64,000 nucleotides of DNA from NCBI GenBank assembly GCA_030424975.1, contig JAUHVY010000002.1, positions 682,001 to 746,000 of the forward strand, in the 5' to 3' direction. The notes under the pieces were generated by a model, which ran no database searches, was not told the DNA's origin, and saw nothing but the letters and a program-made list of their open reading frames with translations. A program made the position numbers and the translations under genes. The DNA is from Alphaproteobacteria bacterium. Its GTDB lineage: Bacteria > Pseudomonadota > Alphaproteobacteria > Micavibrionales > Micavibrionaceae. Below are positions 2 to 34,371 of the stretch, one piece after another (the first letter of the stretch is position 1; the number at the start of each line of letters is the position of its first letter).

Positions 2-1393
2 CAATTCCGCGCAAGATTAGCAAGTGAGGAGGATGCGAATTTACGTGCGGCCATCTCAAATGCTTGGGGAACATACGTTACGACAGAATCTTACAGTGAA
101 ATGAATGCGATTGTTTTGGCGCGCGGTTGGGGCGGCGCCGGTATTTGGTATAACAAAATTGCCGAAATTAACAGCGCGTGGATGGATGGCGTAAGCGGTA
201 TTCCGACGATGGATAAGTTCCCGTTGATCATGGAACAGATCAGAGAGTGGAAACTTCAGCACAACGAAAATATTGAAGGTTTGAAAGCATATGACCCGAC
301 ATTGCAAGCCGGTTCAGCTGAAGAATCTTCGAAACAATTCGAAGTGGCTTTGGGTAGCCAAGAGTTAGTTAAGATTGGTGAAGCATTGGCAGATATGTTC
401 GCTTTCTGGACTGAGAACTCAGAAGATGCACTGAATATGACGCGTTCTAATTTCGGGGACGTATTCCGAAGCGGTGCGCAAATGTTGCTTGGTACAACAG
501 GTTTGCTATCTATTCGTTCTTCCAATGCGTTCTTGCATCCGTTGGCGCAGCTTGTTGCCGTTGGTAAGGGGCTTGTAAACTCTGCTGTTGTCAATATGGC
601 TGGGGCGACGGCATCGGCCTTTATGGGCGGTATGTTTGAGGCATTGGGTAAACAGTATTCTTTCCAAAAGGGTATTAGTGATGCGGCAAGTTCGGTATTC
701 TTTGCGATGGCGTTTATGGGGCTGACTGCAGGCTTTGTATTATTCTACGTTTTACCGTTCCTGCCGTTTGTATATTTCTATTTTGCGGTTGGTTCTTGGT
801 TAAAGGCAATTTTTGAAGCAATGGTTGGTGTTCCTTTATGGGCTCTTGCGCACCTTCGTATTGACGGTGAAGGTTTGCCGGGGGATGCTGCACAAAACGG
901 ATATTTCCTTATTTTAGAAATTTTCATCAGACCGATCTTAACCGTATTTGGTTTGGTTGCAGCGATCACAATTTTTGCGGCTCAGGTCAGAATATTGAAC
1001 TTAATTTGGGATTTGGTGGCTGCGAACATGTCAGGTTATACACCGCGTGAGGATATTCTCGGACAAAATTACACGGCTGATTCATATTTCAGAAGAGATA
1101 TTGCCGATGAGTTCTTCTTTACGGTGATCTATACAATCGTTGTTTATATGCTTGCTTTGGCATCATTTAAACTGATTGATAAAATTCCTGATAATATTTT
1201 GAGATGGGCAGGTGCCGGTGTGTCATCATTCGGTGATATGGATAATGACCATGCAGACAGCTTGTCCAGATATGCTGCTTATGGTGGTATGACCGTTGGT
1301 AACCAGGCCGCAAGTGCGACTGTTGATCTGTCACGCGGTATGGGTGGCATGGCCGGTGGTGAAATCGCGAAATTTAACCAATCTCCTCCTTAG
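2..1393 (+). CDS. DotA/TraY-family membrane protein, copy 1 (5' truncated by window edge)
   Basis: This is the C-terminal 463 codons of a large polytopic inner-membrane protein; the frame is open from base 2, so the start lies outside the window. It shares with the next two genes a GW(G/A)xAG(I/L)WYN block (here about residues 45-55 of the visible part), an HPLA block, and a hydrophobic core with PFLPF, an FEAMVGVPLWALAH stretch and a final segment ending in IPxNILRW. This pattern fits the DotA/TraY family, the inner-membrane channel component of IVB (Dot/Icm, IncI) systems. Family assignment comes from motif memory, not a search. It ends 71 bases before the second copy and probably belongs to the same transcript. 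The substrate is unknown. Confidence 0.8.
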   Translation, partial: QFRARLASEEDANLRAAISNAWGTYVTTESYSEMNAIVLARGWGGAGIWYNKIAEINSAWMDGVSGIPTMDKFPLIMEQIREWKLQHNENIEGLKAYDPTLQAGSAEESSKQFEVALGSQELVKIGEALADMFAFWTENSEDALNMTRSNFGDVFRSGAQMLLGTTGLLSIRSSNAFLHPLAQLVAVGKGLVNSAVVNMAGATASAFMGGMFEALGKQYSFQKGISDAASSVFFAMAFMGLTAGFVLFYVLPFLPFVYFYFAVGSWLKAIFEAMVGVPLWALAHLRIDGEGLPGDAAQNGYFLILEIFIRPILTVFGLVAAITIFAAQVRILNLIWDLVAANMSGYTPREDILGQNYTADSYFRRDIADEFFFTVIYTIVVYMLALASFKLIDKIPDNILRWAGAGVSSFGDMDNDHADSLSRYAAYGGMTVGNQAASATVDLSRGMGGMAGGEIAKFNQSPP

Positions 1394-1464
1394 GGAAATT
1401 AACAGGCTAAAGAGCCGGAAATGAAAATGTAATGACAAGGATTTGTTCAGAGGGTAAATAAAAT

Positions 1465-4371
1465 ATGCTTGGCTATTTTACAACAAAACAGGTTGCACGA
1501 TATGTGCTTTTGCCGGAATTGATGGGCAGAACGAAACAGCTGATAACAGGCGGTTTTGGTTTTGTTCCGTTTTTTATTGCGACTGTTTACCAAATGGTTG
1601 GTCTTCTGCCGCGTAATCACCCTTATTTGATGCAACATAATATTGGTCGTTTCGGAATTCATCATGTTGTCGGCGAAGCAGCGCGTAATGTTAAGTTCAG
1701 TTTGAAACACATTGATCAGGTCCTGATGTTTTTCGCCGTTATGGCCGGGATTATCATATTCTTTATGCAATTTTTAGCATTTGCTTGTTTCATAGCATTT
1801 CAACCTGCTGCTGCTATGCCTACGAACTGGTTAGGTTTTTTTGTCGTTGCAGCGCCAGAGCAGGACATCGCTTATATGATGTTAGATATGGTGTTCGGTG
1901 TTCCGTTGCCCGGTGGGTCCGGTGCCGGATATTCGGGCGGTTTCTTCCAATCATGTATCAGTATGGCAACACCGTGTCAGGATAACTTTGGCGTTGCGGT
2001 TCCGGGGATGACGTCTACGGCCTTAACGGGGGTTCCTGTTGCTCAGTTCTCTCCGTTGGCACCACAAGCATATCAGGCATTCCCGTTTGCTTATCATGAT
2101 GGTTTGCACCGCTTGTTCTCTGTTTACAGTAACGGTTTGTTGGTGATCGCTGTCGGTATTACCGCTTATTTCATGGTGACTGTGGTTGCAGAAACAGCAC
2201 AGAGCGGTACGCCTTTCGGTAAACGTTTTAATAAAATATGGGCGCCGGTGCGTATCGTTGTCGCATTTGGTCTTTTGATCCCGCTGACTGTCGGTTTGAA
2301 TTCATCACAATATTTGGTTTTATACGCTGCAAAATACGGTTCTGCGTTTGCGACAAATGGTTGGAATTACTTTAATACAACGCTTACCACGGCTTACCTT
2401 GGCGATGACGGACAGCGATTGGTGGCATATCCGAATTCACCTGAGCTAATTGAGCTATCCAAATTTTTGTTCGTTTCAAAAGTATGTAAGCATATTTTTG
2501 ATTTCTATGAAGCTGAACGTTTGGGGGTTGCTGTAGGATCATTGACCCCTGCGCAAGAAGTGCGTGCTTATGCTCTTGGTTTCCCGCAAGACAGCCCTGC
2601 CAGAGCTATGGATATTGATGGTACCGGATACAATGCTTTTAACGATCACGTTTTTAATGATCTTGGTGGCGGGCGATTAGATACCAATTATGGAACGATT
2701 GTATTTGGTGTACAGGATCAGGCACGTTTCTCTGATCAGCCGGGGTTTGTTAAACCGGTATGCGGGCAGTTGAAATTCTTATTTACTGATCCGCGCTATT
2801 CAACATTAGTTGCTGCTGCTTATGGTAACAATGACACACCTACACCGGCTTCTGACCATTTGCAACGTGCATATTATAAAGTTATTCAGGATTTTTGGAC
2901 AGATACGGGTTGGAACGGCGTTGTTGGTGACGGCCCGACGCACCCTGCGCAGGCGACGGGTTCACACAACCGTCATAAATTTTATACGAAGGCTATTATT
3001 CCTCAGGCGACAGCGGGGTATGGAACGGTCGCAACGGATACTGATGTTGACGGTACGTTTGCCTCCAATATTCAGGCGAATATGAAAACAATCGTCTCCA
3101 ATAGTGTTGCTACGGCGGTTACGCAACAGGTCGCGACCCCTGTTTGGGGGAATGCGGGTGGCGCTGATAAGGCATATGATATTGGCAGCAAGGGCTGGGC
3201 TGCGGCCGGTATTTGGTATAACCGTATCGCTGAAATGAATGGTGTTCTGGTGGCTGCTGTATACGGGATGCCGCGTATTGAAAAATACCCGCTTACAATG
3301 GAAAAGGTTGCGGAGTTAAAAACAAAAATGGACTCCTCTATTCAGGCGGGCGATCAGTATAAGTGTGAAGTTTCAGGTGTTGATGATGTTTCAAACTTAC
3401 TTGATGCGGCTAAGGGTTCGGAATTTGCTTGTGCCCTATATAAGGCATATGACTCATGGTCTACGGCATCCGAAGGTAATCTACCCGTAGATAAAAGCGG
3501 AAACCCGATTTTGGCCGCGATTAAGTCTATATTAGGTTTGAATGGTCTTTATCAAATGCGTGAAAATCCTTCAACACATCCGCTTGCTATGTTATCTGCA
3601 GTGGGTCGTTCGTTGGTTGAGAGCTCTATTAACACGTTAACTATCTCAGGATTATCAACGATTTTCGCATTCTTAAAGGGTGGTGATAATACATTGGCAA
3701 CCATATCAAGCTTCCTTGTTATGATTTCGATGCTTGGTTTGACGGTTGGTTTTGTCCTGTTCTATGTCGTTCCGTTCTTGCCGTTTATTTATTACTTCTT
3801 TGCCGTTGGTGGCTGGGTAAAGGGGATTTTCGAGGCTATGGTCGGAGCACCGCTTTGGGCGCTTGCACATATCCGTATTGATGGTAACGGTCTGCCCGGG
3901 AATGCTGCACTGAATGGATATTTTTTGATATTCGAAGTGTTCTTACGCCCGATTTTGATTGTATTTGGTTTGCTGGCAAGTATTTCGACATATTCCGCGT
4001 TGGTGAATGTATTGAATAACGTCTTTACATTGGTTACAGAAAACGTTGGTGGTTATGATATTGAATCAGAATTAATTGCGCCGCGTGGTACCATTTCGTA
4101 TATGCGTTCATCCATCGACCAGTTCTTCTTTACGGTAATTTACGCAATTATTGTTTATATGCTTGGTATGGCTTCGTTTAAATTGATTGATATGATCCCG
4201 AATAATATCCTGAGATGGATGGGGCAGAGTGTTGCAACATTCGGAGATCAGCGCGAAGATCCTGCACAAGGTCTGGTGTCTAAGTCTGCTGCCGGTTCAC
4301 AACAAGTATTGTCTAAACTTGGTGGTGGTATGCAAGGTATGACAAAAGCTATGGCCAGTGAAAGAGGCTAG
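1465..4371 (+). CDS. DotA/TraY-family membrane protein, copy 2
   Basis: This is a complete 968-residue polytopic protein. The N-terminal part (residues 1-110) carries an RYVLLPELMGR stretch and the first membrane segment. A second membrane pair lies near residues 225-290, followed by a long extracytoplasmic region (about 300-580) containing cysteines. The C-terminal half repeats the channel core of the first gene: GWAAAGIWYN, HPLAMLSAVG, PFLPFIYYFFAVGGW, FEAMVGAPLWALAHIRIDG and an FFFTVIYAIIVYM segment. DotA of Legionella and TraY of R64 are about 1000 residues and have this organisation. An A/G-rich stretch precedes the ATG. It is the central member of a three-gene tandem array and is probably a structural channel protein; paralogue-specific roles cannot be read from the sequence. 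Confidence 0.82.
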   Translation: MLGYFTTKQVARYVLLPELMGRTKQLITGGFGFVPFFIATVYQMVGLLPRNHPYLMQHNIGRFGIHHVVGEAARNVKFSLKHIDQVLMFFAVMAGIIIFFMQFLAFACFIAFQPAAAMPTNWLGFFVVAAPEQDIAYMMLDMVFGVPLPGGSGAGYSGGFFQSCISMATPCQDNFGVAVPGMTSTALTGVPVAQFSPLAPQAYQAFPFAYHDGLHRLFSVYSNGLLVIAVGITAYFMVTVVAETAQSGTPFGKRFNKIWAPVRIVVAFGLLIPLTVGLNSSQYLVLYAAKYGSAFATNGWNYFNTTLTTAYLGDDGQRLVAYPNSPELIELSKFLFVSKVCKHIFDFYEAERLGVAVGSLTPAQEVRAYALGFPQDSPARAMDIDGTGYNAFNDHVFNDLGGGRLDTNYGTIVFGVQDQARFSDQPGFVKPVCGQLKFLFTDPRYSTLVAAAYGNNDTPTPASDHLQRAYYKVIQDFWTDTGWNGVVGDGPTHPAQATGSHNRHKFYTKAIIPQATAGYGTVATDTDVDGTFASNIQANMKTIVSNSVATAVTQQVATPVWGNAGGADKAYDIGSKGWAAAGIWYNRIAEMNGVLVAAVYGMPRIEKYPLTMEKVAELKTKMDSSIQAGDQYKCEVSGVDDVSNLLDAAKGSEFACALYKAYDSWSTASEGNLPVDKSGNPILAAIKSILGLNGLYQMRENPSTHPLAMLSAVGRSLVESSINTLTISGLSTIFAFLKGGDNTLATISSFLVMISMLGLTVGFVLFYVVPFLPFIYYFFAVGGWVKGIFEAMVGAPLWALAHIRIDGNGLPGNAALNGYFLIFEVFLRPILIVFGLLASISTYSALVNVLNNVFTLVTENVGGYDIESELIAPRGTISYMRSSIDQFFFTVIYAIIVYMLGMASFKLIDMIPNNILRWMGQSVATFGDQREDPAQGLVSKSAAGSQQVLSKLGGGMQGMTKAMASERG

Positions 4372-4411
4372 TTGAGAATCTAACGGTATAATTTGGAAGT
4401 GTAAGAGTAGA

Positions 4412-7400
4412 ATGGCATCATCAAGCTCAAAATTTGTTAGATACAGTGTAATGCCGGGTATTTTGCCCCGGGTTAAGTCTTTGTTCGAGTCCGGTTTTGC
4501 GCTTGTCGCTAATTTGATTGCGGTCATTTATTATAACGTTGGTATATTGCCTGCTAATCATCAGTATCTTGATCCTAAAAATTATGGTCGTTATGGCGTA
4601 CGACATGTGATTGCAGAAGCAGCGAACAGAATTGAATTTAACAGAGACAATATAGATAAGGTTGTCATTTTCATGATTATTCTAATGGGAATGGTCTTGC
4701 TTATGGCACAGTTTGTATTATTTGCATTGACCCTGTTTTCATTTAATCCTGCGATGGCCTCTACATGGTATAATGTATTTGTAAATACACCTGCACCGCA
4801 TTCTTCTTATGATGATATTGCCTTTATGGCACTGGAAAGTGTATTTGGGGTCAGGCAGTATTCCGGCTCCGGCTCGACTTTGGGCTTTTTCAATTCATGC
4901 GTATCGAATACGGGCGTTTACTGTACGGACTACTGGGGGGCTCAAATGGAATTCGGCGCTTTGCCGGCTGCTGCTCCTTACCCGTCGCCGTTCCATTCAG
5001 CGTTGCACCAAATGTTTCGGTTTTACTCAGGCGGTATCGCGTTCTTAGCAATGGTGGTTATTCTCTATCATGTTGTTGCAATTGTTGGTGAAACAATTGC
5101 AACGGGCACGCCATTTGGTCAACGCATGAACCGTGCATGGTTTATTCCTCGTTTGATTGTGTTTTTTGCGTTAATTGCACCTGTAAGTACATCGGGTAAT
5201 AATGATGGTATTAGTGTTGGGCAGATGTTTGTTTTTGCGGCCGCTAAATTCGGTTCAAACATGGCAACAAACGCGTGGCTGGATTATGTGTCTATCGCTG
5301 CGAGACCTGTTGCAGGCGGTAATGTTATGCCTGACATGTTTGGTGCACAATCGACACCGCAATGGCGTAGTTTCGTTGCACGACCGAATGTACCTGAGGT
5401 TGGTGAATTGACGCAATTTATGCATATCGTCAGAATGTGTATGTTCGCAGAAAGAATTGTGAATAATATGAAGATCAGGCCTTATGCTGTGCGTGAGCAC
5501 AGTACGGACACGAGCCCCGTGTCGTATCCCGGCTCAGGGGGCTCTGAAACGTATGCGGAAATGGGCGGTTTTACAGAGGATGCGTTGGAGCTTTTCAATG
5601 GTGAAACTTTCGAGGAGGTCGTACGTTTTTCAAGGTTTGATGATGTGATTATTCGTTTTGGTCACTATAACCCACCGGAGACTACATCATACGGCTCGAC
5701 GCTGACCGAAGCGTATGATCCCGATAACCCGCCCGGGGCATATGACGATGAATTAGGGTATGTTGATCCCGTGTGCGGTGAAATTCAGATGCATATCATG
5801 TCTGTTGATATGTTTGTGATTGGCGGACCTGTTTTTGGTATTCAGCAGAACTATTACGACTCTTTGCGAGAGTATATTTTACAGGATATGACAATCGATA
5901 CGACCGCATATTGTATGCTTCAGGCGATTTTACCGTATCACCAAGATAACGTATGTGTTGATGAAAACTATACGACTGATGATGAGTTTCCTGTTGGCTC
6001 TAACCACTTTCAAAGATCACCGGACACAAAGTGGCTGACTGCCGATGCGGCGCGCGCGGTGATTGAAAGATATAACTCTAAAAACAAGTTTTATCTTGTT
6101 GGTGAAACCACCAATGACGGTACTTATAACTATGATATTAATGAAGATATGTTTGCCAGCCCGTCTTCACCATATTCTGTGATGGCATATTATGATAACG
6201 TTGGTTATCCAAACCATTTGGTTATGAGTAATGCTATTCTGGCAAAGGGTTGGGCAGGCGCCGGGCTTTGGTATAACCAAATCGCGCAGGTAAATGGCTT
6301 TCTTACTGATGCTGTCCAAAACTATCCTCGTCCGTTCAGATACCCTAAAGTGATGGAACAAATCGCTTCGTATCACTTGTCACATGATAGCAACACGTCC
6401 TATGAGCGTCGTTTTAACCCGCGTTTGCAGAACGGTGAATTGGTGCCACTGCCAAGACCGGGCGACCAGTATATAGCCGCAGCTTTATATAGCTCTTATT
6501 CATTATGGAATAGTGCGACCGTTCAGGAAACTGTGTATAGCCGCCACTCTTCCAATGCGATTGTTGATGTTATCAATATGATGCTAGGAACATTTGGTTT
6601 GTATGATGTTGTTGATAACAAATATGTTCATCCTATGGCCTTCCTGAGTGCCCTTGGCAAAAGCATGGTTGATGCAGCGGTTATGAACATGTTCGCAGGT
6701 TTTGGTGGCCTGATTGCGCAACTTGTGCAGGATGATTTTGTTAAAAGCTTGGGGTCTGTTATCTCATCATTTGCTTTTAAATTCGGAATGATTGGTTTAT
6801 CCATCGGCTTTATTTTGTATTATATTTTGCCTCTGATGCCTTTTATATACTTCTTCTTCGCATTTTGCGGTTGGGTAAAGAGTATATTTGAAGCCATCGT
6901 TGCCATTCCACTATGGGCATTGGCACATATTAAAATGGATGGTGAAGGGCTTCCGGGACCGTGGGCAACGAACGGATACTTCCTCTTATTTGAGATATTC
7001 TTACGGCCAATATTAATTATCGCTGGCTTTGTAGCGAGTGTAACCATGTTTACCGCTTTGGTGGATGTGTTTAATACCAACTTCTCACTTATTGCGATCA
7101 ATGCAGCAGGTTTTGATGTTGAAAAAGCATTATTCCCGGGAGATGGCCCTACACCGATGCCGGCAGCAGCAGGGGAAGTCTTGTTAAGAAACCCGGGCGG
7201 ATCGATTGTTGATTATTGGCGCGGCAGTATTGATGAATTCTTCTTTACCGCAATTTATATTATCATCGTATACATGATCGGCTTGTCTTGTTTCAAATTG
7301 GTGGATCAGATACCGAACAACATTATTCGTTGGATGGGGGCAACTGTAAGTACATTCCACGAGCAAGCGGGTGATCCTGCGGGTGAGCTAACAAGCAAGG

Positions 7401-7525
7401 TGTTCCGTGGATCACAGATGACGAACGCCCAAATTAGCGGCTTCTTAGATCGTTTGCGTGGTCGTCCGGGTGGTGATGCTGTTACGAATACTATGATTGC
7501 CGGTGCTGCGACAGGTGGTAAGTAA
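4412..7525 (+). CDS. DotA/TraY-family membrane protein, copy 3
   Basis: This 1037-residue protein parallels copy 2 from end to end: RYSVMPGILPR near the N terminus, first membrane segments about residues 85-110, a large exported loop with several Cys (about 120-200 and 390-560), then GWAGAGLWYN, HPMAFLSALGK, PLMPFIYFFFAFCGW, FEAIVAIPLWALAHIKMDGEGLPG and a last FFFTAIYIIIVYM segment. It starts 40 bases after copy 2 and is followed by a strong terminator, so it probably closes the operon. The exported loop differs strongly from copy 2 while the membrane core is conserved, as expected if the three proteins form a hetero-oligomer or handle different partners. That functional reading is inference. 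Confidence 0.82.
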   Translation: MASSSSKFVRYSVMPGILPRVKSLFESGFALVANLIAVIYYNVGILPANHQYLDPKNYGRYGVRHVIAEAANRIEFNRDNIDKVVIFMIILMGMVLLMAQFVLFALTLFSFNPAMASTWYNVFVNTPAPHSSYDDIAFMALESVFGVRQYSGSGSTLGFFNSCVSNTGVYCTDYWGAQMEFGALPAAAPYPSPFHSALHQMFRFYSGGIAFLAMVVILYHVVAIVGETIATGTPFGQRMNRAWFIPRLIVFFALIAPVSTSGNNDGISVGQMFVFAAAKFGSNMATNAWLDYVSIAARPVAGGNVMPDMFGAQSTPQWRSFVARPNVPEVGELTQFMHIVRMCMFAERIVNNMKIRPYAVREHSTDTSPVSYPGSGGSETYAEMGGFTEDALELFNGETFEEVVRFSRFDDVIIRFGHYNPPETTSYGSTLTEAYDPDNPPGAYDDELGYVDPVCGEIQMHIMSVDMFVIGGPVFGIQQNYYDSLREYILQDMTIDTTAYCMLQAILPYHQDNVCVDENYTTDDEFPVGSNHFQRSPDTKWLTADAARAVIERYNSKNKFYLVGETTNDGTYNYDINEDMFASPSSPYSVMAYYDNVGYPNHLVMSNAILAKGWAGAGLWYNQIAQVNGFLTDAVQNYPRPFRYPKVMEQIASYHLSHDSNTSYERRFNPRLQNGELVPLPRPGDQYIAAALYSSYSLWNSATVQETVYSRHSSNAIVDVINMMLGTFGLYDVVDNKYVHPMAFLSALGKSMVDAAVMNMFAGFGGLIAQLVQDDFVKSLGSVISSFAFKFGMIGLSIGFILYYILPLMPFIYFFFAFCGWVKSIFEAIVAIPLWALAHIKMDGEGLPGPWATNGYFLLFEIFLRPILIIAGFVASVTMFTALVDVFNTNFSLIAINAAGFDVEKALFPGDGPTPMPAAAGEVLLRNPGGSIVDYWRGSIDEFFFTAIYIIIVYMIGLSCFKLVDQIPNNIIRWMGATVSTFHEQAGDPAGELTSKVFRGSQMTNAQISGFLDRLRGRPGGDAVTNTMIAGAATGGK

Positions 7526-7593: not shown

Positions 7594-7622
7594 AAGGGCA
7601 GTGTTTTACTGCCCTTATCTTT
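7594..7622. terminator. Bidirectional intrinsic terminator
   Basis: A 9-bp perfect stem (7594-7602 with 7608-7616) with loop GTTTT is followed by a T-rich run on the plus strand. The A run before it gives a T tract on the minus strand. It lies between the convergent third DotA-like gene and mlaC, so it can end both transcripts. Confidence 0.85.
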
Positions 7623-7642: not shown

Positions 7643-8311
7643 CTATTGTTGGCTTCTCAGATGCTCCAAGAGGGCGTCAATCTTTCCGCCCCCGCGTTGT
7701 ATCACAGAAGAGAAATCAGAGCGCTGTGTGAGCGACATACTCACGCCCTCGACAATAAGGTCAATCACCTTCATGCTGCCGTCTTTCTTTTTACGTACAC
7801 GCCATTCAACGCTGATTTTTGGTCCGCTCGTAGGAACGATCACGGAGCTGACAATAGCATCAGAGTTGCCTGTATCACGTGCCGATACAATATCCAGACG
7901 TTGTCCGTCATATTCACTAAATCGGCGAGAATAGACGTTAATGATCATATTTTCGAATAATGTCATATATTCTTTTTGTTCATCTTTCGAGGCTTGCTTC
8001 CAGTTCTTGCCGAGCGCAAAACGAGCAATTGTTTTCATATCGAAATTTTTCGTCAAAAGTTTTTTAAATTCTTTCTTACGATCATCTTGCGATAGTGAGT
8101 CATCTTCAAGAAAGCTGACACCGTCATCAGCAAGCTTTGTCACAAAGGTTTTTGCTTCGTCACTGACGCTGGCAGCGCTGATTTGGATGATTTGCGGAGT
8201 GGAGTTTGTGCCATGATAATCTGCAATTGGCGTTGCACCGGCATAGCCGACATTCAGACCGATGAGGGAAACACTTCCTAGGGCTGTTAAGATAACTTTA
8301 GACACATTCAT
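7643..8311 (-). CDS. mlaC: MlaC-like periplasmic phospholipid-binding protein
   Basis: MlaC (Ttg2/toluene-tolerance family) shuttles phospholipids through the periplasm between MlaA at the outer membrane and the MlaFEDB ABC transporter, keeping the outer leaflet free of phospholipid. The 222-residue product begins with a signal peptide (about residues 1-26, ending in an AGA-type site). It contains family-type stretches: FDMKTIARFALGKNW, an FSEYDGQ segment and a V-E-W-R-V-RKKDGSMKVIDLIVEGVS region close to the C terminus. The length is normal. It lies 57 bases downstream of mlaA on the same strand; the mlaFED transporter genes are not in the window. Confidence 0.88.
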   Translation of the reverse strand: MNVSKVILTALGSVSLIGLNVGYAGATPIADYHGTNSTPQIIQISAASVSDEAKTFVTKLADDGVSFLEDDSLSQDDRKKEFKKLLTKNFDMKTIARFALGKNWKQASKDEQKEYMTLFENMIINVYSRRFSEYDGQRLDIVSARDTGNSDAIVSSVIVPTSGPKISVEWRVRKKKDGSMKVIDLIVEGVSMSLTQRSDFSSVIQRGGGKIDALLEHLRSQQ

Positions 8312-22116: not shown

Positions 22117-22971
22117 TTATTCACATTGATAGAGAACGTATCTCTTTTGCGACATCGAATAAACGCGAATCCAGAACAGTGAAAAGAACCCCCATCCGCA
22201 TATCCAAAGCGCAGTGTTTTGCTGTGTTTCGCTGAGGCTGAAATAAAGCAATGAGAGGGCGGCTAAGAGCGTTAGGCCAAGTAGTATGGACAATGTATTA
22301 CGTGCCCCGCGTGTGATGCTGTAGATCAAAGTAAACGCCGTATAAGCAAGCAGGAGGGCAAGGATAAGAGTTTGCACTTTAAGCGGGGCGTTTTGCAAAG
22401 CGAGGAGAGATTGCAGGTCGATTAACGGTGCGGCATGATATAGGCAAAGTGCGGACAGGACGCCGAAAAATGCAAATAATATGCGCGAAGCACGGTTGCT
22501 GTAGGCGTAACTTTGGCCGGCCCAAAATGCCGCGCCGATCATGAAAAAGACCGCGATATTAGCAACTAAATCATATTGGCTGAGCTGTGCGCTGCTCGAA
22601 TGAATGTAATATGCTGCATATATCAATGCGAGTGCCAGCCAAACCATGGTGCGTGCGTGTACACAAAGCAGGGCAAAGGCGCTGCGTTTCAGGTTTTCGG
22701 GTGCAACAGCGCGATGTGCCAAATCTTTCGGCAGTTTCGCAAGGCTATAATTACTGGTTTTAGATGATAATTTCTGGCTTGAGAAAAGGTCAAAATGTTC
22801 GCTAAGCTCATAGAGTGAGAGAACGCGCATACAAATATACATACCCCAAAAAACCGACAGAACACCAATCATGGACGGGGTCGGATCAAAATATAGAAAT
22901 GACAGAACGCTTACTGCGATCAGCAGTATGTATGTAAATAGACCGGGGTGTTTAGAAAAATAATATGACAT
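22117..22971 (-). CDS. Polytopic membrane protein of the exopolysaccharide cluster (unknown)
   Basis: A 284-residue protein with about eight hydrophobic segments (near residues 12-30, 33-50, 103-125, 133-150, 160-180, 197-220, 228-245, 255-275) and a cytoplasmic loop around residues 60-100. I recognise no family. Its start overlaps the stop of the preceding small gene by one base, and both follow a Wzc-like gene on the same strand, so a role in polysaccharide assembly, for example a polymerase-like or accessory membrane protein, is a context-based guess. Confidence 0.7.
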   Translation of the reverse strand: MSYYFSKHPGLFTYILLIAVSVLSFLYFDPTPSMIGVLSVFWGMYICMRVLSLYELSEHFDLFSSQKLSSKTSNYSLAKLPKDLAHRAVAPENLKRSAFALLCVHARTMVWLALALIYAAYYIHSSSAQLSQYDLVANIAVFFMIGAAFWAGQSYAYSNRASRILFAFFGVLSALCLYHAAPLIDLQSLLALQNAPLKVQTLILALLLAYTAFTLIYSITRGARNTLSILLGLTLLAALSLLYFSLSETQQNTALWICGWGFFSLFWIRVYSMSQKRYVLYQCE

Positions 22972-23210
22972 TAGGGCGCCTCATAGGCTTTTATCATACG
23001 GAACTGTGCAAATTTTTGAGGAGTGTCTGCAGAATTATCCGAAGGATCGGTTGCAGCATCGGAAGGGTTTTGTTGTACGGCGAGTGCCGCAGCAGAATCA
23101 TGGCCTTTTCCGGTGATGAGGAAAAAGCCGAGGAAAATTTGTAGGCAAGAAAACAGCGCAATGAAGAAAAAAGCGCCACGCCTGGAGATGTTAGAATCGT
23201 TGATTCGCAT
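22971..23210 (-). CDS. Small single-pass membrane protein (unknown)
   Basis: A 79-residue product with a basic N terminus, one membrane segment (about residues 13-33) and a Ser/Asp/Ala-rich tail predicted outside the cytoplasm (PSDAATDPSDNSADTPQ). It begins 23 bases after the Wzc-like gene and overlaps the next gene by one base (TAATG), so it is probably a real coupled cistron. No family is recognised. An open frame on the same strand almost exactly covering it was judged a shadow. Confidence 0.6.
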   Translation of the reverse strand: MRINDSNISRRGAFFFIALFSCLQIFLGFFLITGKGHDSAAALAVQQNPSDAATDPSDNSADTPQKFAQFRMIKAYEAP

Positions 23211-23233
23211 AGCAATAATAGTATAAATAAAAT

Positions 23234-25189
23234 TTAAGCAGCTTGGTATCCGCCATAATGGATGATGGCTTCTCCGTACCCGTACTCAACATGTTTTTTA
23301 AGGTCAATATTCGTCAAAACCGTTGCAATTTGGGTGTTTTTGAACTTTTCGAATTGTGAAATTCCGTTGTGGACAGTTTGCCTTGTTGTGCGGTTCCATG
23401 CCACAGCATAGAGCAATAATTCACTAAAACGCGCGACGCTTAATGTATCTGAAACGGACATGCATGCCGGTGTGTCGATGATTACTAGATCATATTGATG
23501 GCGCAATGTATTTATCAAATTCCCCATTTTGGCAGAGGCGATTAAGTCAGTCGCGCTGTTGGGGACGTCACGTCCGTATAAAACATGCAAACCAGTCGGA
23601 TCAGATGTATCTATGACATCACTAAGGTCCTTACCGCCGACAAGGTATTCAACCAATGAATCGGTGTTCTTTGTTCCCATAATTTTATGAACATTTGGTT
23701 TGCGGAAATCAGTATCAATAAGAATAACGCGTTGCCCTGATTTCGCACTGAGCTTTGCTAGCCAAGTGGACAGCGTCGTCTTCCCTTCACCCGGGGTGGA
23801 AGAGGTCACGGAAATCACCTTTGGCAAGCTTCCGCTTGGTGAATTGATTGTCATGGCCAATTTTAATGTGCGAAGCGCTTCGGTTGTTGTGCTGATCGGG
23901 TTATCGATCACGTAATCACCAAGGGCACGGTTTTTGTCCGCCTTTGTTTGCGGGATAAGCGCGTAGCACGGATGGCCTAACGTGTCTTGCATCTCACGGC
24001 CGCTAAGATATGTTTTGCGGGTAATTTCTAAAATCAGACTGAGCAAAACCCCCGCCAGCATGGATGCAAGCGTACCAAGCAAAATAATGCGGGATTTACT
24101 GTCGGCGAAGCCGTTATCAACGATGCGCGCAGGTGTAATCGTAAAAGGTAAATTGAACGCTTCTGTGCCTGCTGCGGGTTCAATCATATTGGCGATAAGA
24201 TCCATATACTGATTTTCGATTTTATCGCGTGTTGTTTGCGCAACAGCGATCATCTCACCTAATGCTTCTTTGCGCGAAGCATAAGGATCAGCTACATCGC
24301 GGTTTCTGACTTGTGCAACCAAACTTTGCAAAGAATCTTTCGTCTTTTCGTAATTTGCAATAATTTGCGATCGCACAGCACTACGTTCATTTTTGAGCTG
24401 ATCTTCAATAATGGCTAAATCGGCCTTCGCTGTAATCATTTTCGGGTGTTTTTCACCGTATCGTGATGACAAATGGGCGATCTCGTCATTTTGAACGCTG
24501 AGTTTTTTACGCAAAGCAGAAAGTGTACGGTTATCTTCTATAATGCCGTTATCGTTTAATTTATTGTATGCTTCTGCTGCGCGTTGGTGTTCTTTTTCTG
24601 CAACATTCATTGCAAAAATTTTGCCAACGCTGGCGGGTTTTGCAACGGGCTTTTCGGCATCAAGGAGCGCAAGTTCTTCTTGTGCGTTTATGATTGTTGT
24701 TTCCAACTCAGATAATGTTTGCTGATAATTTGCCTGCACCTGATCGAGGGGGGAGGTTTCATCAACTTTATTTTGCGCGGTATATTCGGCCTTGTATTCA
24801 TCAAGTAATGTGTTCAAAACACTGGCTGCGTGTTTTTGATCACGGCTTGTGTATTTTGCATGAATGACATGGGAATCTTTGCTTTGTTCAATGCTTAGAT
24901 TTCTGGACATGTATTCCGCAACGCCCTCTGCCAGCCCCATTGCGTCAACTGTGTCATAGACCAGACGCTCTGTTTGCAGCAACGTTTCTTGTGTGTTTAC
25001 GAATGCAAGATCTGCATCTTTGCGGTCATAAATAATTTCGGCTTGTGCGGTATATTCAGGCTTGATGAGTGATGTGGTATATAAAAATCCGGTAAATCCT
25101 GTGAGGGCAGAGAAAAAGATAAGGAACTTCCTACGCCTGAGAACGCGCATGATTTCCTGAAAACTATTTGGTTGCTCTGTCTGCCTCAT
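23234..25189 (-). CDS. Wzz/BY-kinase fusion (Wzc-like polysaccharide chain-length and tyrosine kinase protein)
   Basis: This co-polymerase controls polysaccharide chain length and export through cycles of autophosphorylation. The 651-residue protein has a first membrane segment (about residues 17-36), a Wzz domain with long coiled coil (about 130-330), a second membrane segment near 370-390 and a cytoplasmic BY-kinase domain with Walker A STPGEGKTT (about 465), Walker A' VILIDTDFRKP and Walker B LVIIDTPA. The last 20 residues contain four Tyr (YGYGEAIIHYGGY), a short form of the usual Tyr cluster. It lies 18 bases from the export gene. No glycosyltransferase gene is nearby. Confidence 0.9.
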   Translation of the reverse strand: MRQTEQPNSFQEIMRVLRRRKFLIFFSALTGFTGFLYTTSLIKPEYTAQAEIIYDRKDADLAFVNTQETLLQTERLVYDTVDAMGLAEGVAEYMSRNLSIEQSKDSHVIHAKYTSRDQKHAASVLNTLLDEYKAEYTAQNKVDETSPLDQVQANYQQTLSELETTIINAQEELALLDAEKPVAKPASVGKIFAMNVAEKEHQRAAEAYNKLNDNGIIEDNRTLSALRKKLSVQNDEIAHLSSRYGEKHPKMITAKADLAIIEDQLKNERSAVRSQIIANYEKTKDSLQSLVAQVRNRDVADPYASRKEALGEMIAVAQTTRDKIENQYMDLIANMIEPAAGTEAFNLPFTITPARIVDNGFADSKSRIILLGTLASMLAGVLLSLILEITRKTYLSGREMQDTLGHPCYALIPQTKADKNRALGDYVIDNPISTTTEALRTLKLAMTINSPSGSLPKVISVTSSTPGEGKTTLSTWLAKLSAKSGQRVILIDTDFRKPNVHKIMGTKNTDSLVEYLVGGKDLSDVIDTSDPTGLHVLYGRDVPNSATDLIASAKMGNLINTLRHQYDLVIIDTPACMSVSDTLSVARFSELLLYAVAWNRTTRQTVHNGISQFEKFKNTQIATVLTNIDLKKHVEYGYGEAIIHYGGYQAA

Positions 25190-25207
25190 TGGTTACTCTT
25201 CCCTTGC

Positions 25208-25894
25208 CTAGCGCGCCTGAATGATGATGATATCACCAGGTTTCAGGCCATAAGTGCCGCTGTCTTGCATACCGCGATAATAGACTTTCTCGGTTTTACG
25301 TATGATTTCAAAGCGTGATTGATTTGCATCATCTGTGTATCCGCCGGCTAGTGCCACGGCATGTAATAAGTGCGATAAATCACCGCCAAAAGGGTACACT
25401 CCCGGGTTTTTTACTGCGCCCAAAACAAAAATGGCATCTTTCGGAACGCTCGGAATATCATTTTTAGAAACCTTTGGCGCTTGAACAGCGGCCTTTGTTG
25501 ATTTGGTCTCATGCTTCTGCGTCACTTCGGCCTTTGTAACGGCCTTAACGGGGGCGGGCGGGGGGGCGAAATATGATACTGAAACCTCCGGATTCTTAAG
25601 GTATCCGTCTTTCAGCGCGGCCTCTATTTTATTCTCTATGTTTGCACCATTTTGTGATGTCACATTAACGCGCCCAATAAGTGGCATCTGAATTGAGCCG
25701 TCGGCATCAATCACGTATGTTTCGCTGAGTTCGTCTTCGCCCTTTACATGAATGACAATTTCTTCGCCGTTTTTAAAGATATGCTTTTCACCACTGACCG
25801 GAGTGCCCGCAAAGGACGGGGCGGCAAATGCCATGACAAATGTCATAGCGCACGTACCAAGAAATAAATGTGGGCGTGTTCGTTTTGAAAACAT
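25208..25894 (-). CDS. Polysaccharide export protein (Wza/Poly_export family)
   Basis: This is a periplasmic/outer-membrane ring component for polysaccharide export. The 228-residue product has a signal peptide (about 1-29, ending SFA), a Poly_export domain (about 35-108, with YVIDADGSIQMPLIGRVNV), a Lys/Ala/Pro-rich linker (about 112-150), and one SLBB domain (about 153-225, with GAVKNPGVYPF and LKPGDIIII). It has no lipobox Cys and no C-terminal amphipathic helix, unlike Wza, so it may need a separate outer-membrane partner. It is the first gene of the minus-strand cluster. Confidence 0.88.
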   Translation of the reverse strand: MFSKRTRPHLFLGTCAMTFVMAFAAPSFAGTPVSGEKHIFKNGEEIVIHVKGEDELSETYVIDADGSIQMPLIGRVNVTSQNGANIENKIEAALKDGYLKNPEVSVSYFAPPPAPVKAVTKAEVTQKHETKSTKAAVQAPKVSKNDIPSVPKDAIFVLGAVKNPGVYPFGGDLSHLLHAVALAGGYTDDANQSRFEIIRKTEKVYYRGMQDSGTYGLKPGDIIIIQAR

Positions 25895-26011
25895 TGGGTT
25901 TCACAGGCCTGTGCAAGAGTTAATGCATTATGCGCATACAAGCATAATGTATTTTGCGATCACCGAACAAGGGTGCGGACTGTGAAGTCTTTGGTTTATC
26001 CAGAGGAAATT

Positions 26012-26842
26012 TTAGGCGCTTTTTACATGCTCTTTTGTAATCGTATGTTCAACGATCCGCGATCCGACCGGCAGATCAACAAGGCGCACAGAAACTTCCG
26101 GCGCAATGCCGTCCTTAGCAAATAAATCTTCGAAATTTGCTATTGCTTCGGCGAAACGATTCGCCGCTTCTGTGGGCTCTGTTTCGTAAAGCGGGCGCTG
26201 TAACAGCAATGCGTATTCGAATGATTCTGTTTGAGCGATGATGTCCGATTGACGACGCAAGCGTACAAGATATTTAGAAAGCTTGGCCACTGAATAATCT
26301 GCGGCATACGGACCTTCGGCTTCGTAGATAGCTTGGTAATTTGTGATGCTGATGAAGACGATGAATGTTCGTTCGCCATAACGATCAGCACGGTCAATTG
26401 CAGAAAGGAAGAGTTGGTTAAACGCGGATTTAGCAATGATGCCTCCTGCGCTCGGGAAGTCTTCGGAATCATCTCCAATGCGTTTGATCAGTGCGGTAAG
26501 GTTCCGTGCGCTGTTGACGGTGGTATCCAATATTTCATTATCAATCGGTTTTAAAATACAGTTGTTTGCACCGGATTGTATCGCCTCAATCTGCGTGATG
26601 TCAGAACCCATTTGCACGATGTAGGGGTAGCGACCTGTCGCGCGGCGCAGGCTCAGAATTGTCGGGCGTGCACTTGTGAGCGGTGCAGGATCTATAAAGA
26701 TCATCTCATAGTCTTCGCTCTCAAGGCGTTCAATCGCGTTGTTCTTGACGGGTTCATGGGTGATTTTATGCCCAAGTGGCTCCAAACGGCTTGTCATCAT
26801 TTGTGCTGTTATATCTTCTCTGTCTACTACTAAAATTCTCAT
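26012..26842 (-). CDS. Response regulator with degenerate GGDEF domain
   Basis: This 276-residue protein begins with a receiver domain: acidic D7 and D10, phospho-acceptor candidate D51 (MIFIDPAP), S80 and K98 (ILKPID). The second half (about residues 128-250) follows the GGDEF fold in outline (FIVFISITNYQAIYEAEG for the usual D-x-D-x-FK-x-x-ND stretch, then RRQSDIIAQTESFEYALLL where R-x-GGDEF would be), but the catalytic GGDEF signature is absent, so it should not make cyclic di-GMP. It lies upstream of, and on the same strand as, the polysaccharide genes, with a 117-base gap. A regulator of that cluster is plausible but unproven. Confidence 0.75.
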   Translation of the reverse strand: MRILVVDREDITAQMMTSRLEPLGHKITHEPVKNNAIERLESEDYEMIFIDPAPLTSARPTILSLRRATGRYPYIVQMGSDITQIEAIQSGANNCILKPIDNEILDTTVNSARNLTALIKRIGDDSEDFPSAGGIIAKSAFNQLFLSAIDRADRYGERTFIVFISITNYQAIYEAEGPYAADYSVAKLSKYLVRLRRQSDIIAQTESFEYALLLQRPLYETEPTEAANRFAEAIANFEDLFAKDGIAPEVSVRLVDLPVGSRIVEHTITKEHVKSA

Positions 26843-28828: not shown

Positions 28829-29518
28829 ATGTCCGAAGACTTATCACAAGAACAAATGGTTGATGAACTTGATCAGCGTATGCAGCGCCTTTCAAGCCGT
28901 GAGGGTTTGGAACGTAATATTGGCGGATATTCGGCTTTCGTTAAATCGATGCGATTAGTCCTGCCTTTGGGGGCTTTGGTTTTGGTGGTTTTATTATTTG
29001 TCGGATCCGAAGATAACGAGCCGATGATTAAACCGATCGAGCAGACATTGAAAGATATGGATGAACCGCAGGTTAATCAGAATGAATTATTGAACCCGAA
29101 ATTCGAAAGCGCGGATAAGAAAAACCAACCGTATAAAATTACTGCTGATCGCGCCATTCAGGGGGAGCAGAACAAAGACCTTATTATGCTTGAAAAGCCT
29201 GTCGGGCAGATGACCTTAAAGGATGGTATGGAGGTCACGATGCGATCGGAGAGCGGTGCATACAGGCAAGATACACAACGTTTTTTCCTGCAGGGCGGAG
29301 TGCATATGCAGCATCAAGACGGGTATGAGTTGGTGAGCGATGAGGCGCATTTCGACTTGGAAAAGAAATATGCGTGGTCGGAAAAGGCCGTGACGGGATC
29401 AGGGCCTGATATATCTATTGCGGCGGAAGGCATGCGCGCAAATGGAGAAACAGGCGAAATTATTTTTACAGGCCCTGCGAAACTGGTGCTTGAGAACGGC
29501 CTTGATGGTGCGTTATAA
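28829..29518 (+). CDS. lptC: LPS export protein LptC
   Basis: LptC is a bitopic inner-membrane protein that takes LPS from LptBFG and passes it to LptA. The 229-residue product has a cytoplasmic N-tail, one membrane segment (about residues 46-65, LVLPLGALVLVVLLFVG) and a periplasmic OstA-like jellyroll (about 85-225) with NPKFESADKKNQPYKITADRA and a DGMEVTMRSESGAY strand pattern. The last stop codon directly abuts the lptA ATG. Confidence 0.9.
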   Translation: MSEDLSQEQMVDELDQRMQRLSSREGLERNIGGYSAFVKSMRLVLPLGALVLVVLLFVGSEDNEPMIKPIEQTLKDMDEPQVNQNELLNPKFESADKKNQPYKITADRAIQGEQNKDLIMLEKPVGQMTLKDGMEVTMRSESGAYRQDTQRFFLQGGVHMQHQDGYELVSDEAHFDLEKKYAWSEKAVTGSGPDISIAAEGMRANGETGEIIFTGPAKLVLENGLDGAL

Positions 29519-30352
29519 ATGGTTATGAAAAAGTTTTTATTAGGTATGGTTTTGCTCTGTTCTGTGGGCGGTGTGGCGTATGCGCAAAATACGCCCAACC
29601 CGGATCGCAATAAGCCATTAGAAATCACCGCAGATGAAAGCCTGGAATGGCACCGTAATGAGCAGTATTTTCGCGCGCGTAAAAATGTTGTTGCAACCCA
29701 AGGCGGAACAACGCTTAAGGCGGCCTTGCTCACCGCGAAATATAAGCAAACCGAAAAGAGCGGTATGGATATTCATACCATTGAGGCGCGCGGCAATGTG
29801 CAGATCCTTTCGGCAAAAAGTAAAGCCTATGGTGATGTTGCCGTCTATGATGTGGCAAAGGGATATGCCGTGATGACGGGCAAGAATTTACGCGCCGTAT
29901 CAGAGGACCAAACCATCACTGCGCGCGATAAGTTTCAATATTGGGCCAAAACGGGACGTGTAGAAGCGATTGGCGCGGCGAAGGCGAAGCGTGAGGGTGA
30001 TACTCTTGAATCTGATAAGATTGTTGCAATTTTTACAACGGATAAAAACGGTAAGCGCGTATTACATTCATTGGAAGCGGTCGGTAATGTTACGATCACA
30101 ACGCCTGATGAGGTGCTGAAGGGCGATAAGGCAACATATTCGGCGCAGACAAGTATTGCGCAAATACATGGGAATGTCAGAATTGCCCGTGGCCCGAATA
30201 CGTTAAATGGTGCACGCGGTGAAGTGAATTTGAAAACGAATATCAGCAAAATTTTCGGCGCGGATAATCAAAATGCCGGTGAAGGGAAGGGGGGTCGTGT
30301 AAGCGGTGTTTTCTATCCCGGGTCTAATTTGAACCCAAAAAATGATGAGTAG
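29519..30352 (+). CDS. lptA: LPS transport periplasmic bridge protein LptA
   Basis: LptA forms the periplasmic bridge that conveys LPS to LptD. The 277-residue product has a signal peptide (about 1-22, ending VAYA) and an OstA fold with repeated strands: PLEITADESLEWHRNEQYFRARKNV, ARGNVQILSAKSKAYGDVAVYDV, and GNVTITTPDEVLKGDKATY. It is about 90 residues longer than E. coli LptA, with the extra part at the C terminus (basic Gly/Asn-rich tail). An ATG two codons later is an equally possible start. Confidence 0.9.
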   Translation: MVMKKFLLGMVLLCSVGGVAYAQNTPNPDRNKPLEITADESLEWHRNEQYFRARKNVVATQGGTTLKAALLTAKYKQTEKSGMDIHTIEARGNVQILSAKSKAYGDVAVYDVAKGYAVMTGKNLRAVSEDQTITARDKFQYWAKTGRVEAIGAAKAKREGDTLESDKIVAIFTTDKNGKRVLHSLEAVGNVTITTPDEVLKGDKATYSAQTSIAQIHGNVRIARGPNTLNGARGEVNLKTNISKIFGADNQNAGEGKGGRVSGVFYPGSNLNPKNDE

Positions 30353-30368
30353 GTAAGGGTAGGCGCAT

Positions 30369-31025
30369 ATGGATATTTTATTGAAATGGGCTTTGATGGC
30401 CTCCGTACAGCTGGCCGCAACGATGTCACCGGGGCCGGCTTTTGTTGTGTGTGTGCGTAATGCGTTGACACATGGGCGGGCTGTTGGCGTTTTTACCGCG
30501 CTGGGGCTTGCGCTTGGTGTTGGGGCGCATGTTTTATTTGTTTTGCTTGGTATTGCGCTGATTATTTCGCAATCCGTCTTCTTGTTTAATTTGATTAAAT
30601 ATATGGGCGCGGCATATTTATGTTATATCGGCGTGAAGTCTATTTTGTTTTCAAAGAAGCGTGACGCATCTGATGATATGCAAGGGGAGCAGGCTGGCAT
30701 CACGGCTGTAAAAAGTAATGTAAAATCAATGCGTTTTGATAAGGCGGTGTTGAACGGATTTTTGACAAATCTGCTTAATCCAAAGGCTGTTGTATTTTTT
30801 ACGGCGGTATTTACGCAATTTATCGGCCCTGATACATCACATATTGTGCATGTGGTTTATGGGATGACATCGGTTATCATTGAATTTTTATGGTTTAGCG
30901 GCGTGTCTATTGTTTTGACAAATGCGCGCGTAAAACGTAAATTTATGGCAGTAATGCATTGGGTAGAGCGCACCTGCGGCGGCCTTATGGTTGGTTTGGG
31001 TGTTAAGCTGGCTTTATCAAAATAA
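30369..31025 (+). CDS. LysE/RhtB-family amino-acid exporter
   Basis: A 218-residue membrane protein of the LysE/RhtB family, which exports amino acids such as lysine, homoserine or threonine. The family stretch MSPGPAFVVCVRNALTHGRAVGVFTALGLALG-like region is at residues 19-50, an LIKYMGAAYLCYIGVKSI helix is near 75-95 and NGFLTNLLNPKAVVFF is near 130-146. About five or six membrane segments are present. The substrate is not predictable. It interrupts the otherwise conserved lptA-lptB order and is an accessory insertion in the operon. Confidence 0.88.
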   Translation: MDILLKWALMASVQLAATMSPGPAFVVCVRNALTHGRAVGVFTALGLALGVGAHVLFVLLGIALIISQSVFLFNLIKYMGAAYLCYIGVKSILFSKKRDASDDMQGEQAGITAVKSNVKSMRFDKAVLNGFLTNLLNPKAVVFFTAVFTQFIGPDTSHIVHVVYGMTSVIIEFLWFSGVSIVLTNARVKRKFMAVMHWVERTCGGLMVGLGVKLALSK

Positions 31026-31109
31026 TTTACCACATGGATGATTTGGTGTATTGGTTCATCTTCCTGTCATGACCCGCGTCATGATGGTTCTGTAAGAGTA
31101 TGAAATTTT

Positions 31110-31883: not shown

Positions 31884-31946
31884 TCTCTTTTAATTTTCGT
31901 TATATACGACTGTATTTGTGGTGACTTCTTACTGCCGCATGGTAAT

Positions 31947-33434: not shown

Positions 33435-33531
33435 AATGTTTGACTAAAGTCATTGATAAAATGTCATTTAGGGAATACACCTAAAGGCATGAATAGACAA
33501 AGTTTCATAAACCACAAAAGGGTAAAAAATC

Positions 33532-34131: not shown

Positions 34132-34156
34132 TATCAATTTTTCATAAGAATTTAAG

Positions 34157-34186
34157 ATTCCCGCAGCATTTTGCGGGAATTTTTTT
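34157..34186 (+). terminator. Intrinsic terminator after hpf
   Basis: A 9-bp perfect stem (34157-34165 with 34172-34180) is followed by seven T. It separates hpf from the ptsN-like gene; the 185 AT-rich bases after it presumably hold that gene's promoter, though no clear one is seen. Confidence 0.9.
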
Positions 34187-34371
34187 GTCTATAATTCATG
34201 TATATTACGATATAAAAAAACACAAAAATCGCTTAAATCATTGTAAATAAATGGTTATTTGTGTGTTAGTTATTGCAAAAATAAATGAATTTTTTTCTGG
34301 ATTTTGCTATTCGCCTTATGTTACAAACCTGCGACTTGTTAAGGACAGTTGAGAAAAAGGAAGTTTGCAAG

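What the first reader, a model, noticed from the sequence alone, without database searches (positions are those of the whole stretch)
2..7525. Three tandem, full-length DotA/TraY paralogues
The visible parts of all three share the membrane core while the exported loops of copies 2 and 3 differ greatly. Legionella Dot/Icm and IncI plasmids are known to have one DotA/TraY gene. A same-strand triple array suggests a hetero-oligomeric channel, or paralogues dedicated to different partners, in a lineage-specific IVB-type apparatus. Inference from motif conservation and gene order.
Basis: partly seen in the sequence, partly recalled or inferred. Interest (0 to 1): 0.75.

Follow-up and report, generated by a model that had tools for sequence, protein, structure and literature searches.

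The report
Three tandem DotA secretion-gate genes
Bacteria of the Micavibrio family (which includes known bacterial predators) carry three old, side-by-side, clearly different versions of the gene for the inner gate of a Legionella-type injection machine, where the best-studied machines have one, so the gate is probably built from, or switched between, three kinds of subunit.

Summary
Three full-length DotA/TraY (VirB6-class) genes lie in tandem: 1002 aa (start 1.6 kb upstream of the window), 968 aa and 1037 aa. They are 36-41% identical, hit TIGR04346 (E 2e-50 to 1e-72), and the two modelled ones match the Legionella DotA structure 9ngy (Z 19-20). They are the only DotA genes in the complete 2.43-Mb genome. 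The rest of one chromosomal IVB machine sits elsewhere: DotD-C-B and DotI-H-G-N-O 230-255 kb away, DotM-DotL about 90 kb away.

The array is a fixed trait of the family: 57 intact arrays in Micavibrio-related genomes have 3 (52) or 4 (5) copies, never fewer. Trees group copies largely by array position. Single-copy sister families carry one dotA at the same ettA-mlaC site, so the genes were multiplied in place. The long periplasmic segment has diverged to about 20% identity.

Best reading: three non-redundant gate subunits of one machine. Heteromeric versus alternative gates cannot be decided by sequence. Closest precedent: tandem VirB6 paralogues of Rickettsiales.

The parts
2..1393 (+). dotA copy 1 (D1), last 463 of 1002 aa; starts 1616 bp upstream of the window at contig C2:680385 (GTG)
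   Evidence: TIGR04346 E 2.4e-50; full frame in L002:2386-5394; position-1 clade
1465..4371 (+). dotA copy 2 (D2), 968 aa
   Evidence: TIGR04346 E 1.2e-72; AlphaFold model pLDDT 76; 9ngy DotA Foldseek E 1.2e-11, prob 1.00, VIA-align Z 19.2, 596 residues aligned, rmsd 6.9
4412..7525 (+). dotA copy 3 (D3), 1037 aa
   Evidence: TIGR04346 E 4.5e-54; model pLDDT 73; 9ngy DotA Foldseek E 5.8e-11, Z 19.8, 581 aligned, rmsd 6.4; R388 TrwI/VirB6 Z 10.2, 264 aligned
1394..1464 (+). 71-nt spacer D1-D2 (no strong terminator found)
   Evidence: median gap between neighbouring dotA copies in 70 loci is 25 nt
4372..4411 (+). 40-nt spacer D2-D3
7594..7616 (+). terminator-like hairpin (10 pairs, then T-rich tail) between D3 and the convergent mlaC; probable end of a dotA1-dotA2-dotA3 transcript
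   Evidence: consensus scan only, L002:11595-11617
7643..8311 (-). MlaC-like gene, conserved right-hand neighbour (landmark, not part of the system)
   Evidence: within 1 kb of the array's end in 44 of 57 intact relatives; also next to the single dotA of G121 and G119. The name MlaC is from general knowledge of the gene order; it was not scanned against a family library here

Best explanation
The array encodes three non-redundant paralogous subunits of the inner-membrane gate (DotA/TraY, VirB6 class) of one chromosomal type IVB secretion system. Shown here: they arose by tandem multiplication of a single dotA at its present site in the stem of the Micavibrio family and have been kept in fixed order since; membrane cores are conserved while the long periplasmic segment has diverged to about 20% identity; the likely VirB5/TraW/IcmX-like partner is also multiplied, as are IcmD-like units, while DotC, D, G, H, I and the ATPases were found once each in the loci read. 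Inferred: since Legionella DotA and IcmX form a stacked five-fold protochannel, the three DotA proteins most likely co-assemble into a heteromeric protochannel, topped by a heteromeric VirB5-like tip, that delivers proteins to other cells.
For: Family and fold. Other IVB genes: DotH E 1e-69; DotD, DotC, DotB, DotI; DotG/TraO, TraQ-like; DotM, DotL/TrbC; DotO/TraU E 3e-88 and DotN/TraT E 7e-9. Fixation: 52 arrays of 3, 5 of 4, none with fewer, among 57 intact ones; 135 of 142 genomes of the order have DotA. Order and orthology: position 1, 2 and 3 copies of about 33 relatives form separate starred clades with parallel branching; a better model on 102 rows gives position-1, -2 and -3 clades of 16 rows each at 100, and all family copies apart from single-copy outgroups at 98. 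In-place origin: single dotA at the ettA/mlaC site in G121, beside ettA in G140, beside mlaC in G119. Operon-like spacing: 128 of 137 gaps at most 100 nt, 20 overlapping. Divergence: 20-24% in the long periplasmic segment versus 38-56% in the cores; copy-specific fixed residues. Partner expansion: five X paralogues with position-specific clades; X frames of relatives also match plasmid TraW. TraW, IcmX and VirB5 are listed as equivalents, pentameric, beside TraY/DotA/VirB6, pentameric (PMC12624023). The DotA-IcmX protochannel is pentameric and gates translocation (PMC12857230; PMC12981334). A separate tandem triplication occurred in family f6, G126.
Against: No data on co-assembly, stoichiometry or expression. 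Conserved co-retention fits alternative single-type gates equally well. DotA and X numbers do not match: three DotA with five X here, three DotA with two X in M. aeruginosavorus-type genomes. Copy 2 and copy 3 are not each one clade across the whole family (5-6 label changes), so some copies were re-duplicated or converted. The TraW link of X is weak in the window's own genus: profile-profile comparison fails (probability 1) and the TraW model does not find X in this genome; it rests on relatives that match both profiles.
Confidence: 0.5

Rival explanations
1. Three alternative same-copy gates: each DotA makes its own pentamer, used with different TraW/IcmX-like tips, substrates, prey or life stages, on a shared outer-membrane core and shared ATPases.
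For: The long periplasmic segment, which by analogy meets IcmX, is the divergent part; partner paralogues are expanded and position-conserved; three-member X arrays in other genera mostly hold one member of each of three X classes.
Against: Tight operon-like spacing in relatives argues for joint expression; DotA:X numbers are not constant; no copy was found lost among 57 intact arrays, though dedicated gates should sometimes be dispensable.
Confidence: 0.3
2. Recognition or exclusion: the copies diverged mainly because their exterior-facing parts are recognised by neighbours, as TraY is by the exclusion protein ExcA in IncI plasmids, so multiple TraY-like proteins set who can inject whom.
For: TraY works with ExcA in entry exclusion (PMC6112013); fast divergence of the long periplasmic segment.
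Against: No ExcA-like gene was sought or noticed beside the array; conserved neighbours are mlaC and ettA; conserved cores show a channel role is kept.
Confidence: 0.08
3. Plain gene amplification for dosage, or neutral redundancy.
For: Tandem arrays often arise this way; some lineages have a fourth copy and some sister pairs (L051 positions 2 and 3).
Against: Copies are only 36-41% identical and carry position-specific conserved residues; position-specific orthologues persist across the family without loss.
Confidence: 0.04

Closest known systems
DotA of the Legionella Dot/Icm T4BSS (PDB 9ngy)
   Same: Same fold over most of the length (Z 19-20), same C-terminal motif block, same class of machine
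   Different: One DotA protein in the Legionella machine by the papers read; here three. Here an extra N-terminal region of about 100 aa precedes the part that aligns with Legionella DotA. Far below the Legionella equivalog cut-off (128-162 versus 500 bits)
TraY (with TraW, TraX) of IncI1 plasmid R64
   Same: TraY matches each copy (E 2e-14 to 2e-8); most other parts have R64 counterparts
   Different: R64 has one TraY and one TraW in one operon; here three DotA and five TraW-like genes in two separate loci, with no relaxase in the stretches read around the three IVB loci (relaxase places)
Tandem VirB6 paralogues of Rickettsiales (four in Anaplasmataceae, five in Rickettsiaceae)
   Same: Tandem, co-oriented, divergent paralogues of the VirB6-class gate in an alphaproteobacterial chromosomal system (PMC7648143)
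   Different: Those belong to an IVA-type system, and A. phagocytophilum lacks VirB5; these belong to an IVB system and the VirB5-like protein is multiplied too
Protein-secreting I-type T4SS (pT4SSi) reported in seven marine Micavibrionales
   Same: Same order and system class (PMC9418006)
   Different: The passages read give no DotA copy number

Membership tests
DotA/TraY family (VirB6 class) | Score above the curated cut-off of TIGR04346 (100 bits) | tested here: met
   171.8 (partial D1), 245.5, 184.2 bits
DotA/TraY family (VirB6 class) | DotA fold | tested here: met
   D2 and D3 models versus 9ngy: Z 19.2 and 19.8 over 596 and 581 residues, well above all other rows. D1 not modelled
DotA/TraY family (VirB6 class) | Pfam PF11388 DotA model | tested here: inconclusive
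   No match, but the control genomes also gave none
Legionella-type DotA (NF033886 equivalog) | Score of at least 500 bits | tested here: not met
   128-162 bits
Type IVB secretion system | DotD, DotC, DotB, DotI, DotH, DotG, DotO in the genome | tested here: met
   locus at C2:424.6-451.8 kb
Type IVB secretion system | Coupling complex DotL/TrbC and DotM/TrbA | tested here: met
   TrbC E 2e-119, DotM E 7e-46 at C2:587.5-592.5 kb; both below the equivalog cut-offs
Conjugative IVB system | Relaxase linked to the transfer genes | tested here: inconclusive
   Four relaxases in the genome, none within the stretches read around the three IVB loci; transfer in trans is not excluded
TraW/IcmX/VirB5 class (the X1-X5 proteins) | Profile match to TraW | tested here: inconclusive
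   No match to X in the window's genome and hhalign probability 1, but in 11 relatives TraW matches (E 1.5e-6 to 7e-3), and in those re-examined the match is an X frame
TraW/IcmX/VirB5 class (the X1-X5 proteins) | Pentameric tip on the DotA gate | not testable with these tools
Hetero-oligomeric VirB6 gate | Different paralogues in one ring | not testable with these tools
   Needs biochemistry or cryo-EM

The most novel reading that the evidence does not exclude
A type IVB machine whose central conduit is heteromeric at each level: a mixed ring of three DotA proteins, a mixed tip of up to five TraW/IcmX-like proteins (in this genus as many as the subunits of the Legionella ring), and multi-unit IcmD-like proteins. 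It would be fixed in an alphaproteobacterial family that includes epibiotic predators, and convergent with the VirB6 expansion of Rickettsiales.
Probability: 0.35. Interest if true: 0.82.

Novelty: new variant of a known kind. Interest (0 to 1): 0.6.

Why it matters
The DotA-IcmX protochannel is the proposed gatekeeper of IVB secretion, and published models treat it as a five-fold ring of one DotA protein. A family in which the gate gene has been kept in three distinct versions makes the question of what the gate subunits recognise and how they open testable by comparison, and gives an independent parallel to the unexplained VirB6 expansion of Rickettsiales. It also points to a contact-dependent injection machine in M. 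aeruginosavorus, a predator whose genome paper reported no evidence for a type IV system (PMC3189940): the held genome with exactly the published length, 2,481,983 bp, has the three-gene array and the core locus.

Tried and rejected
Apparent fused dotA genes: the whole-genome search showed open frames of 1812 and 1829 aa (G012, G058). Reading the DNA showed in-frame stops between the genes, so there is no fusion and no fusion argument for contact.

Pfam PF11388: no match, but uninformative because nothing matched in the controls.

X as a known family: no useful Pfam or PDB match; not in plasmid or viral collections; TraW link only through relatives.

One DotA paired to one X: rejected as a general rule, because numbers differ among genera.

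Mobile-element origin of the array: not supported; the site and neighbours are conserved.

The FastTree run contained some wrongly read outgroup fragments; the later trees use corrected ones.

IcmX itself was not fetched for a direct comparison; the equivalence TraW = IcmX is taken from a published table.

Full report
What was checked. The window is contig C2:682001-746000 of a 2,428,954-base genome in two contigs, rated 100% complete. The three frames at 2-1393, 1465-4371 and 4412-7525 are real and co-directional. The first begins outside the window, at C2:680385; the whole gene codes for 1002 aa. All three score above the curated cut-off of TIGR04346 DotA_TraY, and the whole-genome search finds no other copy. 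They are far from the Legionella-only DotA model (128-162 against 500 bits), so they belong to the broad DotA/TraY family and not to the Legionella equivalog.

Similarity beyond hydrophobicity. Over the full length copies 2 and 3 are 41% and 36% identical to copy 1, with invariant motifs such as PLWALAH and DGxGLPG. By region, identity is 37-43% in the N-terminal 110 residues, 38-56% in the first membrane core, 41-47% in the C-terminal core, but only 20-24% in the long periplasmic segment between them (region borders were set by hand on the copy-2 model). Legionella DotA aligns only from about residue 104 of the profile, so these proteins have an extra N-terminal region of about 100 aa. AlphaFold models of copies 2 and 3 (mean pLDDT 76 and 73) have one significant Foldseek match in the PDB, the Legionella DotA-IcmX protochannel 9ngy (E 1.2e-11 and 5.8e-11). 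VIA-align gives Z 19.2 (596 residues, rmsd 6.9) and Z 19.8 (581 residues, rmsd 6.4); copy 3 also matches VirB6 of R388 at Z 10.2 (264 residues, rmsd 6.8). The large rmsd may reflect domain shifts and the middling model confidence.

The rest of the machine. No other IVB gene was found by similarity to R64 Tra proteins in the 40 kb upstream or elsewhere in the window. The core locus lies at C2:424.6-452.4 kb: DotD, DotC and DotB, DotI, DotH, a short DotG/TraO, a 552-aa protein with three IcmD-like units and a TraQ-like end, a separate 140-aa IcmD-like protein, a DotN/TraT-like protein, DotO/TraU and a weak IcmV-like protein. DotM and DotL/TrbC lie at C2:587.5-592.5 kb. The machine is therefore spread over three chromosomal places. 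Names such as IcmD for the 140-aa protein and DotN for the TraT match rest on gene order and established correspondences between R64 and Legionella genes (own knowledge), not on a family model. Four relaxases exist in the genome, none within the stretches read around these loci, which fits protein delivery but does not prove it.

How general the array is. A search of genome contigs returned 70 loci from Micavibrio and unnamed alphaproteobacterial assemblies. Of 57 arrays not cut by a contig end, 52 have three copies and 5 have four; none has one or two. Of 137 gaps between copies, the median is 25 nt, 128 are at most 100 nt, and 20 are overlaps. MlaC lies within 1 kb downstream in 44 of 57, and EttA within 1 kb upstream in 40 of 57. 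In the order, 135 of 142 genomes have DotA. In the wider class only 12 of roughly 380 sampled genomes outside the family do, mostly with one copy. The 70 loci are the best matches to these very genes, so they sample mainly this family.

Origin. Trees place copies by their position in the array, with parallel branching order (209 rows; 102 rows under a mixture model). In the window's half of the family the three positions are separate clades at full support. All family copies form one group apart from single-copy relatives (98). Across the whole family, position 1 needs 2 label changes but positions 2 and 3 need 6 and 5, so the deep split of copies 2 and 3 is not clean; later duplication or gene conversion in some lines is likely. 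Single-copy sister families have one dotA at the same place: between ettA and mlaC in G121, beside ettA in G140, beside mlaC and downstream of dotI-dotH-dotG in G119. The simplest history is multiplication in place in the stem of the family. Family f6 (G126, G127) made its own tandem copies separately (100), and two genomes elsewhere in the class have pairs.

Divergent from dotI lie five tandem genes, X1-X5, coding for 463-601 aa, 31-43% identical to one another, with N-terminal ends that look like export signals (read by eye). They were found in 120 of 135 genomes of the order, five in nearly every genome of the window's genus and usually two to six elsewhere in the family; they are mostly missing in the single-dotA families f5 and f7. 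X copies are also position-specific orthologues. No Pfam, NCBIfam or PDB match exists for the window's own copies. In relatives the NCBIfam TraW model matches weakly (11 genomes, best E 1.5e-6); in the six that I re-examined the match lies in an X frame, and several frames match both an X profile and a plasmid TraW profile. Direct profile-profile comparison fails. I hold X to be TraW-like with moderate confidence. A published table equates TraW, IcmX and VirB5, pentameric, and TraY, DotA and VirB6, pentameric (PMC12624023).

Mechanism. Shown: one IVB system, three retained and diverged gate paralogues, conserved cores, divergent periplasmic segments, multiplied likely partner. Established elsewhere: DotA and IcmX form a pentameric protochannel that rearranges to open (PMC12857230; PMC12981334). 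Inferred: the three DotA proteins co-assemble in one heteromeric gate (about 0.5), or serve as alternative gates (about 0.3). Tight spacing and absence of loss favour the first; divergence in the part expected to meet the partner fits both. Delivery of proteins to other cells is inferred from the class of machine and the lack of a linked relaxase.

What is known. Tandem VirB6 paralogues in Rickettsiales are the closest precedent (PMC7648143). An I-type system was listed for seven Micavibrionales (PMC9418006). The M. aeruginosavorus ARL-13 genome paper found no evidence for a type IV system (PMC3189940); the held genome G047 has exactly the published length of 2,481,983 bp and carries the core locus and a DotA triple. 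Within the held open-access papers no report of multiple DotA genes was found; most subscription papers are not held, so this is not proof of novelty.

Noticed in passing
G000 contig C2:433498-441060 (L012:3498-11060, - strand): Five tandem paralogues of a probably exported, cysteine-containing protein, divergent from dotI; weakly TraW/IcmX-like through relatives; position-specific orthologues across genera. Possibly as interesting as the dotA array itself.
   Followed up: yes
G000 contig C2:445697-447355 (L013:697-2355): One 552-aa protein holds three IcmD-like units followed by a TraQ-like end, next to a separate 140-aa IcmD-like gene; M. aeruginosavorus-type genomes have a shorter 388-aa version, and G225 has three neighbouring genes that match it.
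   Followed up: partly
G047 (2,481,983 bp) and G046 (2,458,610 bp): The held genome of the published length of M. aeruginosavorus ARL-13 carries a IVB core locus and a DotA triple, against the statement in its genome paper that no type IV system was evident.
   Followed up: partly
L150:4276-14839 (G126) and L175 (G127): Family f6 has its own tandem dotA copies, one of them with a long C-terminal extension (1330-1383 aa), arisen separately from the window's array.
   Followed up: partly
L047, L048, L051, L053, L057, L069, L070: Five arrays (L051, L053, L057, L069, L070) have a fourth dotA; in L051 copies 2 and 3 are sister genes, so duplication continued in some lines. In L047 and L048 copy 2 falls outside the main copy-2 clade.
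   Followed up: no
window 1465-1794 and 4412-4741 (dotA copies, residues 1 to about 110): Extra conserved N-terminal region before the first export-signal-like helix, not aligned with Legionella DotA; similar start regions are visible in single-copy sister families.
   Followed up: no
G000 contig C2:427669-429291 and C2:444476-445600: Two acidic proteins (540 aa, and 374 aa with one apparent membrane helix) conserved in the IVB core locus of relatives without a family match; candidate lineage-specific parts.
   Followed up: no
window 22117-26842 (- strand): Small polysaccharide cluster: Wzc/EpsG-like tyrosine autokinase, Poly_export/SLBB protein, a GGDEF protein and a 284-aa protein without a Pfam match.
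   Followed up: no
window 28829-34842: lptC-lptA-(transporter)-lptB-rpoN-hpf-EIIA order, a common envelope/sigma-54 block; ordinary.
   Followed up: no
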